From: Hirudinaria manillensis
Lineage: Eukaryota > Annelida > Clitellata > Hirudinida > Hirudinidae
Assembly: GCA_034509925.1 (NCBI GenBank)
Contig: CM067533.1
Location: 3,672,535-3,736,534 of the forward strand
DNA: 64,000 bases
Reading direction: 5' to 3'
Position numbers and translations under genes: made by a program. Positions 9,403 through 21,619 of this stretch are shown one piece after another. The stretch's first letter is position 1. Each line of letters starts with the position of its first letter. The notes under the pieces were generated by a model. That model searched no databases. It was not told the origin of the DNA and was given only the letters and a program-made list of their open reading frames with translations.

Positions 9403-9561
9403 CTATCCACGATTATTATGAATTCCTTCATCGGGGTACTCATAAATTTTAATCACGGGCGAGGGGCTTCGCACGGGTCGTCGTGGCTCTCCGTCGCTGT
9501 CGCAAGCCGCGTTCCAGTCCGGTTCGCAGAGACGTTCCTGAACGGAAACAGGTCCGCCTAG
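9403..9561 (-). pseudogene. Degenerate Kazal-like exon (remnant of the Kazal family)
   Basis: A minus-strand exon-like segment starts after the acceptor 'aaaatcctag' in phase 1, the same phase as exon 2 of the three Kazal genes further right. It is GC-richer than its surroundings and ends at a TAG near 9403. It reads VQERLCEPDWNAACDSDGEP..., which fits the Kazal core C2-x7-C3-x-SDG. The expected C1, C4 and C5 are missing, and a Pro/Arg/Glu-rich end with IYEYPDEG follows. No signal-peptide exon was found upstream. It may be a decayed or strongly diverged paralogue, or an unrelated terminal exon with a chance match. Confidence 0.35.
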
Positions 9562-10449
9562 GATTTTAAAAGTAATCTCTTTTATCCGTAACATTGAAAA
9601 CTGCAAAACACTGTTCATCTGAGATTGAATGTCCAGAATCTAATTCCTGTTACTTTTTATTGGCTGTCCTCTTTGCAAGCAGACTCGAGTTTTTGGCCTT
9701 TCTTTGCTCGGCAATTGTTTTTAATTCTCAAAGAGCAGGATGAAAATTGAGGAACATAGGTTTCTTTCAAAGATGGATTCATGACCTTGATGTTCAGAAT
9801 TTATCCGATGGAGTTCGTACCTTGATGTGCTTTTACGTATCCCTTTACAGGGACGGTTGCAAGATTTTTACAGTGCTATTTATAGGGCCACTGACAGATT
9901 ATAGGGTCAGAGGTTTATAATTTGGGTGGTGGAATATTTAAATAATTTAATAATTTATTTAAATAAATTTAAATAATTAAATAATTTAAATACATTTTCT
10001 GTGCACCCTTGCCACAAAGTGAATATTTTTCAATAATCCACGAATATTAATTTTAATTTTTGTTTCATAATTAACTTTTTTTCTGTTTTATTTTGAGATT
10101 AAGTTTTAGCTCTTTAACTTTTAGCAGATTCACAAAGTATGAGTGCCGGTTGTGCACGACTGAACGCGGTTGAGCATCTATTTTTCTTAACACGGATCAA
10201 CAGCAATAATTCAACATCAACAACAACAAATCAATACCAACAACTGAATTTAGTTTTTTGTTCACCTCCCTCTGAGGAAGCTGTCAATTACAAGTTCGAA
10301 AAACTTGGCGATAATTAGGCGGACATTATAAATAAAATAATTAGCAACAGCCATCATCATCATCATCATCAAAAGCACCAGTATCGTCATCAGCGTTGTT
10401 TTGATACTTCGAGTCTTTTGTCTTCGTCTTCTAAAACCTCAAGGGAATT

Positions 10450-12304
10450 TCAATCATCGTCGTCGTCGTCGTCGTCATCATCGTGGGTGGCCCGGGACTG
10501 CCCGTTGTGGGCGTCGGAATCGTCATTAGAATCGTCGTCGGAATCGTCATCAGAACCGTCGTCTGAATCGTGATGTTGCTGCCCGGTCACATCGTCGTCA
10601 TCGTCGTCGTCATCGTCACGGCTGTCAAGGTGACCTACTTTGCCGTCGTCGTTGTCGCCATCGTCGTCGTCGTCGTCGTCATCGCTGCTTTCATCGTGGT
10701 GATCTTCGGTCTTGTCTCCCGGGGGTGAATCGCAGGGTCCCGGGTGTACCACGCTTACGCCCCTATTAAAATATAATTTTGAAATAATCATCAAAATTGT
10801 AATTATTAAATTATGTGTATTATTTAACTTTTAAATTTAAATGTTTAAATGTTCGACTAAAAATTTTTTATTTGGAAATCAATGAGCTCTTGTTTGGTTT
10901 TTTAGGATCTCAAAGTAAGAAGCTGTTGTTTCTGTTGTTGATGAACAGCCTGGAAAACTTTGGAAAACATTTGGAAAACATTTGCGCAGACAAGGAGCAA
11001 CTGTTTCTATGAACGTTAGAACGTTGTTGCTCTTCTTTCTGGACACGAGCAGACCGTCATCATTATCATCATCACCATCACCATCACCATCACCATCACC
11101 ACCACCACCACCACCACCACCACCACCACCACCACCACCACCACCACCACCACCACCACCACCACCACCATCACCATCATCATCATCATCATCATCATCA
11201 TCATCATCATCATCATCATCATCATCATCATCATCATCATCATCATCATCATCATCATCATCATCATCATCATCATCATCATCATCATCATCATCATCAT
11301 CATCATCATCATCATCATCATCATCGTCATCATCATCACCATCTACTTCATCATCGTCATGAATGAGCATTTATCATCAGTACAGCCGCCAAATGTTAAT
11401 TGCTCAATTATCGCCCTCTTAATTCGAAAAACATTCATAAAAATTACACATAAATATTTTATACATTTAAATTCATTTATTATTTTTATTATTATAACAA
11501 TTCTAATAATTCTAATAATAATTATTAGAATGATTATTATAATTACACATAAATATTTTATACAGCTAAATTCATTTATTATTATTATGACTCACTTGCA
11601 AGTGGCTTCGCATTCGTTGGAGTGGGTATGACCATCGGTACCACACACAGGAAGATAAACCGATGGACAGACACAAACAGGCGGTGAAACAGCTTGGATG
11701 GAACCTGGAATAGTTTTGTAAATACTTTTAGATTAACATTAACATTAGATCGAGTACCGTAATGTAGTAATTACTAGAATTATTATAAATACATTGTTGA
11801 GTTGTTATGAATATATTATTAAATCGTCATCTAATTCAGAATTGTTAATCAGTAAATCAGATTATTACAAACTACTAACATGTAAGGATTAAAATAGGTT
11901 GAGGAATTATAAATCAGTTACGTGCTATTCATTTTATTTATTTATTTATTTGTTTATTTATTTCTGCTTTCACAATCATCCACTTTTTAGAGATTAAGAG
12001 GAAGGTTCACGAGATTGGTATCAGCCGAAGATGGTCGCAAAAAAGCAGTTTACATGTCAGCATTATCCTGTTGTACGGAGAAACATCGAGAAGAAGTGCG
12101 AAATCATATTTGTAAAATTGTAAAAGTAAAAAAAGCCGAGAAAGTCAAGTGGTTCATGCAAGGCATGACCTTTAACCCTTGACTTCCGTTATAATTATTG
12201 TTAATCTTCAAAGCAAAGTTATTCTAGAGAAATCGTCTAATAATTCAATGAAATGTTCACTCACCTAGGAGAGCGAGTGCTACCAGCGTCAGTATCAACA
12301 TCAT
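10450..12304 (-). CDS. Secreted single-domain Kazal-type inhibitor with poly-aspartate C-terminal tail
   Basis: Three exons join in phase: 12304-12265, 11704-11596 and 10762-10450, giving 153 aa. Exon 1 encodes the signal peptide MMLILTLVALALLG and ends in phase 1. Exon 2 carries five Kazal cysteines (VCVCPSVYLPVCGTDG...NECEATC) and ends in phase 2 at a strong donor, AA|GTGAGT. Exon 3 supplies K-GVSVVHPGPC with the sixth cysteine. Spacing is C1-x-C2-x7-C3-x10-C4-x3-C5-x10-C6, a normal Kazal fold. The residue at the family's P1 position (second after C2) is Ser, suggesting no trypsin preference. After C6 comes a tail of about 90 residues that is more than half Asp, with Ser, His and Gly, e.g. 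runs DDDDDDDD. Kazal domains block serine proteases; the tail could bind Ca2+ or mineral, which is inference. If intron 2 were retained, the protein would stop after ...CK. Confidence 0.82.
11045..11345 (-). repeat. (GAT)n microsatellite in intron 2 of the Kazal/poly-Asp gene
   Basis: About 300 bp of almost pure trinucleotide repeat, (ATC)n on the plus strand with an internal (ACC)n part at about 11098-11170. On the gene's strand it is (GAT)n, so all three frames are open (poly-Asp, poly-Met, poly-Ile). By the splice model it is intronic, lying 280 bp upstream of the exon that encodes the poly-Asp tail. Confidence 0.95.
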
Positions 12305-12363
12305 GCTTTCAACTTTGCAAAGCTCCCCACGAGTAGTACCGGAATAATATCGGACCAAAAGTA

Positions 12364-20371: not shown

Positions 20372-21030
20372 TCAGACCATCGAAAAAAGGACTTTCAAGT
20401 CGTTCTTGAGAGTCAATGTACATTCACAAATGTCATTCAGTTCAGTTCTTTTTCCTTCTTTTCCAGGCGTTATTTTTAAAGATTCGCCAAATCTAATGGG
20501 TCTCGTGCATGGTTTTGATGGAGGTCCACATGAGGAACCTCCTCGAGACCCCTTAATCTTCTCCAAACCCTCCAAGACTCTTCTGCTATTGCTCCTCTCC
20601 AGTTCAAGACCAGGGCGGTGATGGTACCTTTCTGACTCCGTTGTTCCGGCATCGGATTATTTTCCTTCATCCATTGGTGGATTCCTGGAATGTCATACTT
20701 TGCGACTTTTGAAGCATATATTTTGTTCAAGTCGGCAGTATCCACTGCCACGTCACATACGACGTATGTGGAGCTTTTCCATGCGCACAAATCAGGAATT
20801 TTTGTTCCTTCGTCGGAATTCTGGGTTCAATGCTGGTAGTGAACCCCATATTTTCAAGTTTGCTTCCTAATATGGCCAAAATAGAGTTGTGTCTGACTCC
20901 TAGCCGGACCGGGGCATACAGGAATTCATTGGGGACGTCCTTCGGCAATTTCAACCAATGTCGAACCGTCCAATGGTGACGTCGACGGCATTCTTTGTCG
21001 ACGAGCAAACGAAATTTCGTCAACCGCTCG
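20372..21030 (-). mobile_element. Non-LTR retrotransposon fragment, C-terminal part of the polyprotein
   Basis: Two overlapping minus-strand frames together resemble the part downstream of the reverse transcriptase domain in R2/NeSL-like LINE polyproteins: LPKDVPNEFLYAPVRLG, then, after a frame change near 20790, VVCDVAVDTADLNKIYASKV, HQWMKENNP and LVLNWRGAIAEESW. The frameshift and the lack of the reverse transcriptase core show it is dead and truncated. Its position just below exon 2 of the third Kazal gene places it in what would be that gene's second intron. The exact LINE clade is uncertain. Confidence 0.72.
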
Positions 21031-21103
21031 AGCCGTATTATTATTATTATTTAATTAAATAATTAATTAATTATTTATTTATTTATTAGTCAAACGATCT
21101 AAC

Positions 21104-21619
21104 TAGCACTTGGCATAGCAAGCGTTCATGTAGGTCTGGCGATCTGCTCCACATACGGGTCTGTATTCCAGTTGACATCTACATTCCTTGTATTCTGCAC
21201 TCGTCGTGAAATTATTCCACAGAATTATAATTTGAATTTTCACAATTAATCGCATCTCAAACAGTCCCACAATGTAATTTAACTAATCTAATCGGGCACT
21301 ATTTCCAAATGCAGATTTTGGGTAGCTCGCATAAACTGATATTGTATTATATATTACATTGCACATGAAGTTATATGTTATCTATTATAAATATGGTATA
21401 TACGTATACTACGTTGTAATAGTTGAGCTACTGCATATCACGCACAAACTCTCAGATAAGTCAGATAACTTATCAAGTTATAATTGTAATGTAACATTAT
21501 TACAATGCAATGTAAACCCAAATTTATTGTAAATCCAAAGTCTACGACTTACGCTGACCGAAGGACATCGTAACGTAAACAACGGCCAGAGTCAGAATTA
21601 GCACCACCAATAACTTCAT
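21104..21619 (-). CDS. Secreted Kazal-type peptide, exons 1-2, with ovomucoid-like loop
   Basis: Exon 1 (21619-21553) encodes the signal MKLLVVLILTLAVVYVTMSF and ends in phase 1. Exon 2 (21194-21104) reads ECRCQLEYRPVCGADRQTYM...CYAKC, with the same C1-x-C2-x7-C3-x10-C4-x3-C5 spacing as its paralogues. The segment C-Q-L-E-Y-R-P-V-C-G closely follows the reactive-site loop of avian ovomucoid third domain, with Leu at P1. That suggests inhibition of chymotrypsin-, elastase- or subtilisin-like proteases (inference from the family). The next bases, TA|GTTAGA, form a TAG stop or a phase-2 donor at exactly the paralogues' splice position. A third exon with C6 was not found, and a LINE fragment sits immediately downstream. 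Confidence 0.72.

What the first reader, a model, noticed from the sequence alone, without database searches (positions are those of the whole stretch)
9403..21619. A lineage-specific cluster of Kazal inhibitor genes with one shared exon plan
Three minus-strand genes share the same build: a signal-peptide exon ending in phase 1, then an exon with C1-x-C2-x7-C3-x10-C4-x3-C5, ending at the same phase-2 GT right after the C5 codon (TGC AA|GTGAG, TGC AA|GTGAG, TGC TA|GTTAG). The P1-position residues differ (Ser, Val, Leu), so the set may target different proteases. C1-x-C2 is a non-classical Kazal spacing. Because all exons are tiny, ordinary gene prediction would probably miss the family.
Basis: partly seen in the sequence, partly recalled or inferred. 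Interest (0 to 1): 0.75.

Follow-up and report, generated by a model that had tools for sequence, protein, structure and literature searches.

The report
Three leech Kazal protease inhibitor genes
The window, from a medicinal leech, holds three small genes for secreted Kazal-type protease inhibitors, kin of the known leech proteins LDTI and bdellin; they look real and complete, but they add members to a known and scattered family rather than showing anything new in kind.

Summary
Spliced, they give 63, 60 and 153 aa; B ends in a 93-residue tail with 47 Asp. All three pass Pfam's Kazal cut-offs and match leech-derived tryptase inhibitor (LDTI) across the domain. The genome is most likely Hirudinaria manillensis: the same exon plan applied elsewhere in it reproduces published bdellin-HM (167 aa precursor, 149 mature). 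The plan is not peculiar to this cluster: 22 such exons were found in this genome, 4 of 4 exons of a longer-spaced Kazal type end at the same point, and human SPINK1 has a phase-2 intron after C5. One origin for the three is not shown: each has its highest identity to a gene elsewhere, and B's neighbourhood is a mosaic copy of the bdellin/ribosomal-protein-SA region of another chromosome. P1 = Leu, Val, Ser is right; P1 is, narrowly, the family's most variable column. Lineage specificity, expression and targets could not be tested. New members of a known kind.

The parts
21553..21619 (-). Gene C exon 1: signal peptide MKLLVVLILTLAVVYVTMSFGQ, ends phase 1
   Evidence: donor gtaagt
21104..21194 (-). 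Gene C exon 2: Kazal C1-C5, P1 Leu, ends phase 2 (TGC TA|GTTAG)
19935..19968 (-). Gene C exon 3 (tentative): KVKIVSQDEC stop, gives C6 at C5-x10-C6
   Evidence: score 6.7, near background; LDTI match runs through it, query residues 3-41
20483..20993 (.). Fragment of an interspersed repeat inside gene C intron 2
   Evidence: 39 other scored matches at 92-93% for 20483-20897 (only 40 of 133 candidates scored)
19076..19136 (-). Gene A exon 1: signal peptide MKFFIVLLIIASVCEADWKD, ends phase 1
   Evidence: TATAA 74 nt before ATG
18831..18918 (-). Gene A exon 2: Kazal C1-C5, P1 Val, ends phase 2 (TGC AA|GTGAG)
18441..18474 (-). Gene A exon 3: NVAIAKDGKC stop, gives C6 at C5-x10-C6
   Evidence: (score 15.0; best hit outside the recognised third exons 9.2)
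12265..12304 (-). Gene B exon 1: signal peptide MMLILTLVALALL, ends phase 1
   Evidence: TATAA 65 nt before ATG
11596..11704 (-). Gene B exon 2: Kazal C1-C5, P1 Ser, ends phase 2 (TGC AA|GTGAG)
10450..10762 (-). Gene B exon 3: GVSVVHPGPC with C6, then a 93-residue tail with 47 Asp, stop
   Evidence: (score 26.6, but this exon was one of the 11 used to build the matrix)
7863..13650 (.). Mosaic of old duplicated blocks (70-89% identity) shared with the bdellin/RPSA region and bdellin-like repeat arrays of contig C4, in which gene B lies; 9736-11481, with gene B exon 3, has no match there

Best explanation
The locus holds three separate three-exon genes for small secreted Kazal-type serine-protease inhibitors of the non-classical LDTI/bdellin group, in a hirudinid leech (most likely Hirudinaria manillensis). 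Shown: signal exon, Kazal exon and C6 exon in matching phases (C6 exon tentative in C), cysteine spacing x, 7, 10, 3, 10, and family membership by Pfam and by match to LDTI. Inferred: the exons are spliced as drawn; the proteins are secreted; each folds with bonds 1-5, 2-4, 3-6 and offers the loop after C2 to a serine protease, which binds it like a substrate but releases it very slowly (standard mechanism). With P1 Leu, Val and Ser rather than Lys, they should not be strong trypsin inhibitors but could fit elastase-, chymotrypsin- or subtilisin-like enzymes, of the host, of microbes in the gut or of the leech itself. Gene B resembles a bdellin whose charged tail is Asp-rich, and most likely shares its origin with the bdellin region now seen on C4.
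For: Three complete open models of 63, 60 and 153 aa with GT-AG introns. Pfam over cut-off for all three. LDTI in the PDB matches through C6: B 1.3e-10 (second to the many-domain agrin), C 1.1e-7 (third after ovomucoid and rhodniin), A 8.8e-8 (the best match); for A the LDTI score is 25.8 bits for the Kazal exon alone and 35.2 with the third exon and a longer N-terminus. Positive control for the plan: applied to L004 it gives a 167-aa precursor with a 149-aa mature part starting DSECVCTKELNQVCGSDGHTYDNPC, as published for purified and cDNA-cloned bdellin-HM. P1 has the highest entropy of 26 columns (3.37 bits, 12 residue types in 19 rows; next columns 3.30 and 3.22). Duplicated DNA around B.
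Against: No transcript or protein was seen for any of the three. Gene C's third exon scores near background. Signal peptides were judged by hydrophobicity only, and the signal-exon scan looked only for phase-1 donors. None of the three has P1 Lys, so the known activities of LDTI and bdellin-HM cannot be carried over. Clear third exons were found for 14 of the 22 plan exons only. A gene-B-like exon on C4 is broken, so decay does occur in this family.
Confidence: 0.85

Rival explanations
1. Some or all of the three are relics: intact in frame but no longer expressed, like the gene-B-like exon on C4 that has lost its frame.
For: A gene-B-like Kazal exon at C4:438.8-439.0 kb carries a stop and frame breaks, and the 3.3 kb read at C4:526.2-529.5 kb holds a bdellin-like third exon with no Kazal exon found in it. 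Gene C's third exon is weak, and its intron 2 holds a repeat fragment.
Against: All three keep signal, cysteines, phases, splice sites and a stop, while the duplicated blocks around gene B are down to 70-89% identity.
Confidence: 0.12
2. The exons belong to one multi-domain Kazal gene rather than to three genes.
For: All three Kazal exons lie on one strand, and this genome has a two-domain LDTI-like gene (L003).
Against: Each Kazal exon has its own signal exon upstream and its own C6 exon ending in a stop; the order along the strand is signal-Kazal-C6-stop three times over.
Confidence: 0.03
3. Real inhibitors, but directed at the leech's own or gut microbial proteases (digestion, immunity, reproduction) rather than at the host during feeding. 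This does not exclude the best explanation; it differs on the target.
For: P1 residues are not of the trypsin type; bdellins are said to occur in other organs besides the salivary glands (PMC4999845, Discussion read).
Against: Nearest known relatives LDTI and bdellin are listed among antithrombotic proteins (PMC10671345, passages). No expression data here for either side.
Confidence: 0.4

Closest known systems
Leech-derived tryptase inhibitor, LDTI (PDB 1an1, 1ldt, 2kmo)
   Same: Non-classical Kazal with a match across the whole domain for all three; same exon plan in the LDTI-like gene of this genome (L003)
   Different: P1 is not Lys; identity to the first LDTI domain of this genome is 54% (B) and 41% (C), and LDTI is not among A's six nearest; the LDTI-like gene here has two domains
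Bdellins (bdellin B-3, bdellin-KL, bdellin-HM)
   Same: C1-x-C2 Kazal; gene B has a highly charged C-terminal tail and shares duplicated flanking DNA with the bdellin region; same exon plan
   Different: B's tail is chiefly Asp (47 of 93) where those of the bdellin genes in L004 are rich in His, Asp and Glu; P1 Ser instead of the Lys of these three bdellins; genes A and C have no tail
Vertebrate SPINK1 (classical Kazal)
   Same: Secreted single Kazal domain with a phase-2 intron between C5 and C6 (exon 3 ends at c.194; PMC7949130, passages)
   Different: Longer C1-C2 and C5-C6 spacings (recalled); intron four codons after C5 (C5 = Cys61 recalled) instead of within the next codon

Membership tests
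Kazal-type inhibitor (Pfam PF00050/PF07648) | Profile match above curated cut-off | tested here: met
   all three (gene A typed with one Tyr too few, outside the domain); exons alone also over the cut-off
Kazal-type inhibitor (Pfam PF00050/PF07648) | Six cysteines in Kazal spacing | tested here: met
   for gene C the sixth rests on a tentative exon
Kazal-type inhibitor (Pfam PF00050/PF07648) | Disulfides 1-5, 2-4, 3-6 and inhibition of a serine protease | not testable with these tools
   needs expressed protein
Non-classical LDTI/bdellin group | One residue between C1 and C2 | tested here: met
   definition from PMC4999845
Non-classical LDTI/bdellin group | C5-x10-C6 and exon plan as in the LDTI-like and bdellin genes of the same genome | tested here: met
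   gene C's third exon tentative
Bdellin proper | P1 Lys | tested here: not met
   Leu, Val, Ser; a second bdellin-like gene of this genome has Leu too (L004)
Bdellin proper | Highly charged repetitive C-terminal tail | tested here: inconclusive
   met by gene B; absent in A and C, whose last residue is C6
Lineage-specific gene cluster | The three genes form one clade apart from other Kazal genes of the genome | tested here: inconclusive
   tree unresolved, AU p 0.104; highest identities lie elsewhere
Lineage-specific gene cluster | Absence from related species | not testable with these tools
   no other leech genome was available (one search says this genome has no relatives here)

The most novel reading that the evidence does not exclude
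This leech carries a large, mostly unreported radiation of LDTI/bdellin-type inhibitors (22 such exons on four contigs found here, against one bdellin and one LDTI gene in the published catalogue), whose reactive P1 position has been the most freely varied site, giving a set of inhibitors with specificities well beyond trypsin; the three window genes, with elastase- or chymotrypsin-type P1 residues and one Asp-rich tail, are a part of it, and one of them moved between chromosomes with pieces of the bdellin region.
Probability: 0.45. Interest if true: 0.4.

Novelty: new member of a known kind. Interest (0 to 1): 0.27.

Why it matters
Leech Kazal inhibitors are studied as antithrombotic leads. 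The published catalogue for Hirudinaria manillensis lists one bdellin and one LDTI gene, and its automatic gene set found no bdellin (PMC10671345, passages). A simple rule (signal exon in phase 1; Kazal exon ending 2 nt after C5; C6 exon at C5-x10-C6) recovers more candidates and can be run on any leech genome.

Tried and rejected
Rejected: the open stretch at 9555-9406 as a fourth Kazal exon (no Pfam match; only relative, C4:446.9-447.2 kb, is split over two frames). Rejected, tentatively: TAG after C5 in gene C as a stop (C6 exon in phase). Rejected: one multi-domain gene. Set aside as not of this group: Kazal hits at C12:7.55-7.58 Mb and in L014, L020, L025 and L027-L029, which look like the Kazal-like domains of organic-anion transporters (my reading), and L019, a false hit of the pattern. 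Led nowhere: DNA homology of genes A and C to the C4:3.62-3.645 Mb cluster (none at E 1e-3); papers with bdellin-KL and intron (0); Kazal with intron phase and exon (2 listed, none opened); Kazal domain with two exons and intron (3 listed, none opened); Kazal in PMC10087013 (0 occurrences). Pfam on three ribosomal-protein-SA pieces gave nothing; NCBIfam uS2_euk_arch matched two C4 pieces below its cut-off. No structure was predicted: the spliced proteins are not contiguous in the DNA. Pair tests on the tree: A with C p 0.186; B with two bdellins and L003_minus p 0.25; none rejected, none shown.

Limits of the survey: loci were chosen from Pfam hits whose match mostly stopped before C6. The tree holds 20 of the 22 plan exons (L005, whose Kazal exon is identical to one in L004, and L023 left out); the entropy table holds 19 of 22 (L007_1112, with two residues between C1 and C2, left out as well).
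Full report
What was checked. A six-frame scan of the 64-kb window with a loose Kazal pattern gives three matches and no more, all on the minus strand. Whole-genome searches with the two Pfam Kazal models list the same three exons over the curated cut-offs.

Completed gene models. Scanning downstream for an acceptor followed by one base and a C6-bearing peptide of variable length gives a third exon for each gene. The 11 third exons picked from that scan for a scoring matrix (gene B's included, genes A's and C's not) all place C6 at C5-x10-C6. 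The matrix scores gene A 15.0, above the best hit outside the recognised third exons, 9.2, in 273 kb searched on both strands; gene C scores 6.7, where 10 to 12 other hits of that score or more occur in the 546 kb of strand, so about 0.04 would be expected in gene C's own 2-kb interval. Gene C's third exon is therefore likely but tentative. Counting scores of 11.8 or more, 14 of the 22 plan exons described below have a clear third exon; the other eight (gene C, L005, L008_5838m, two in L009, two in L012, L023) do not. Spliced, the window genes encode 63 (C), 60 (A) and 153 (B) residues, with GT-AG introns of 358 and 1,135; 157 and 356; 560 and 833 nt. Some 510 nt of gene C's long second intron is a fragment of an interspersed repeat with 39 other scored matches at 92-93% (lower bound). 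TATAA lies 74 nt before the ATG in A and 65 nt in B; in C there are several such sites in AT-rich DNA.

Which organism. The window lies in contig C8 of a 148.43-Mb assembly of 23 contigs. Published H. manillensis has 148.59 Mb in 22 scaffolds, 13 of them chromosomes, and an LDTI with two internal repeats (PMC10671345, passages); the LDTI-like gene here (L003) has two domains. Decisive: joining exons of L004 (from C4:440.9 kb on) by the same plan gives a 167-residue precursor and a 149-residue mature protein beginning DSECVCTKELNQVCGSDGHTYDNPC, as reported for bdellin-HM purified and cloned from H. manillensis (PMC4999845, Results and Discussion read). This is also a positive control for the exon plan, phases included.

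The plan is general. In L003-L022 and the window the pattern scan listed 24 distinct places (nested matches counted once); 21 have GT exactly 2 nt after the C5 codon, and one more such exon lies in L023. These 22 exons lie on contigs C2, C4, C8 and C9; 21 have one residue between C1 and C2 and one has two. The three others are two transporter-like domains (L014, L020, my reading) and one false hit (L019). Four of four exons at C9:4.925-4.929 Mb, of a Kazal type with longer C1-C2 and C4-C5 spacing, also end 2 nt after the codon of their fifth cysteine. Human SPINK1 exon 3 ends at c.194, position 2 of codon 65 (PMC7949130, passages; C5 = Cys61 is recalled). The intron is thus a feature of Kazal genes more widely, not a mark of this cluster, although many Kazal places of this genome match to the end of the profile in one frame and so seem to lack it.

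Is it one cluster by descent? The 39-column tree of 20 domains is unresolved. The three window genes do not group in the best tree, and a forced clade of three is not rejected (AU p 0.104). By identity, C is nearest to C4:3.62 Mb (51%), B to the first LDTI domain (54%), A to C4:3.645 Mb (46% over 28 columns). Against that, A's nearest row by tree path is C, A's only other genome match is C and C's second-best match is A, so an old A-C pair is possible. Gene B differs: blocks within window 7863-13650 match the bdellin and ribosomal-protein-SA region of C4 at 70-89%. The copy is a mosaic, not colinear: gene B's Kazal exon matches C4:438.8-439.0 kb, its signal exon C4:620.9-621.1 kb, its third exon nothing, and the block upstream of it recurs many times at C4:443-446, 525-533 and 621-644 kb. 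The RPSA match in the window ends at 7863 while the C4 gene continues with its N-terminal part, so C4 is the likelier source; that is inference. The gene-B-like Kazal exon at C4:438.8-439.0 kb is broken in frame. Clusters of this kind are already known: in Hirudo medicinalis LDTI and three tandem bdellins adjoin (PMC7303139, passages), and Whitmania acranulata is listed with six LDTI and three bdellin genes (PMC11897028, passages).

How it probably works. Kazal inhibitors act by the standard mechanism, with specificity governed mainly by P1, the second residue after C2 (PMC4999845, Discussion). Here P1 is Leu (C), Val (A) and Ser (B). Across 19 aligned family exons P1 has the highest entropy of 26 columns, 3.37 bits with 12 residue types, narrowly above two others at 3.30 and 3.22, as expected if targets differ. 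From P1 alone, elastase-, chymotrypsin- or subtilisin-like targets are likelier than trypsin; that is inference. The Asp-rich tail of B parallels the charged tails of bdellins; what such tails do is not settled here.

Verdict. A correct and useful reading of raw sequence: three real, apparently complete, probably functional inhibitor genes of a known leech family. The claims of a lineage-specific cluster and of a plan peculiar to it are not supported. What is mildly new is the number of such exons in a genome whose published catalogue lists one bdellin and one LDTI gene; a bdellin-HM2 is also on record (PMC12651989, passages). I could not read that catalogue's supplementary files, so some of these genes may already be in its gene models.

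Noticed in passing
window 9555-9406 (-): G+C-rich open stretch of 50 codons after an AG, with two cysteines and no Pfam match; its only relative in the genome lies downstream of the bdellin genes on C4 and is split over two frames.
   Followed up: partly
window 7863-9152: Partial copy of the 3' part and downstream flank of the ribosomal protein SA gene of C4:447.3-448.6 kb (70% identity), one of the duplicated blocks.
   Followed up: partly
L034 and C4:525-533, 621-644 kb: Repeated units of about 3 kb; the unit read (L034) holds a bdellin-like C6-and-tail exon but no Kazal exon was found in it, and the genome-wide Pfam searches list none at these places.
   Followed up: partly
window 7.2-4.7 kb (-): Multi-exon gene for tRNA-dihydrouridine synthase 3-like (Pfam Dus and DUS3L zinc finger).
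   Followed up: partly
window about 3.6-1.8 kb (-): Exons that look like a Twinkle-type mitochondrial DNA helicase (my reading; one peptide gave only sub-cut-off AAA-type matches).
   Followed up: no
window about 14538-15480: Some 940 nt of nearly pure GATT repeat between genes A and B, and other long ATT, GAT and GGT tracts in the introns and gaps.
   Followed up: no
L008 2489-2581 (C4:3641488): A Kazal exon in the C4 cluster that seems to have lost C5 although a C6 exon follows at L008:2840.
   Followed up: no
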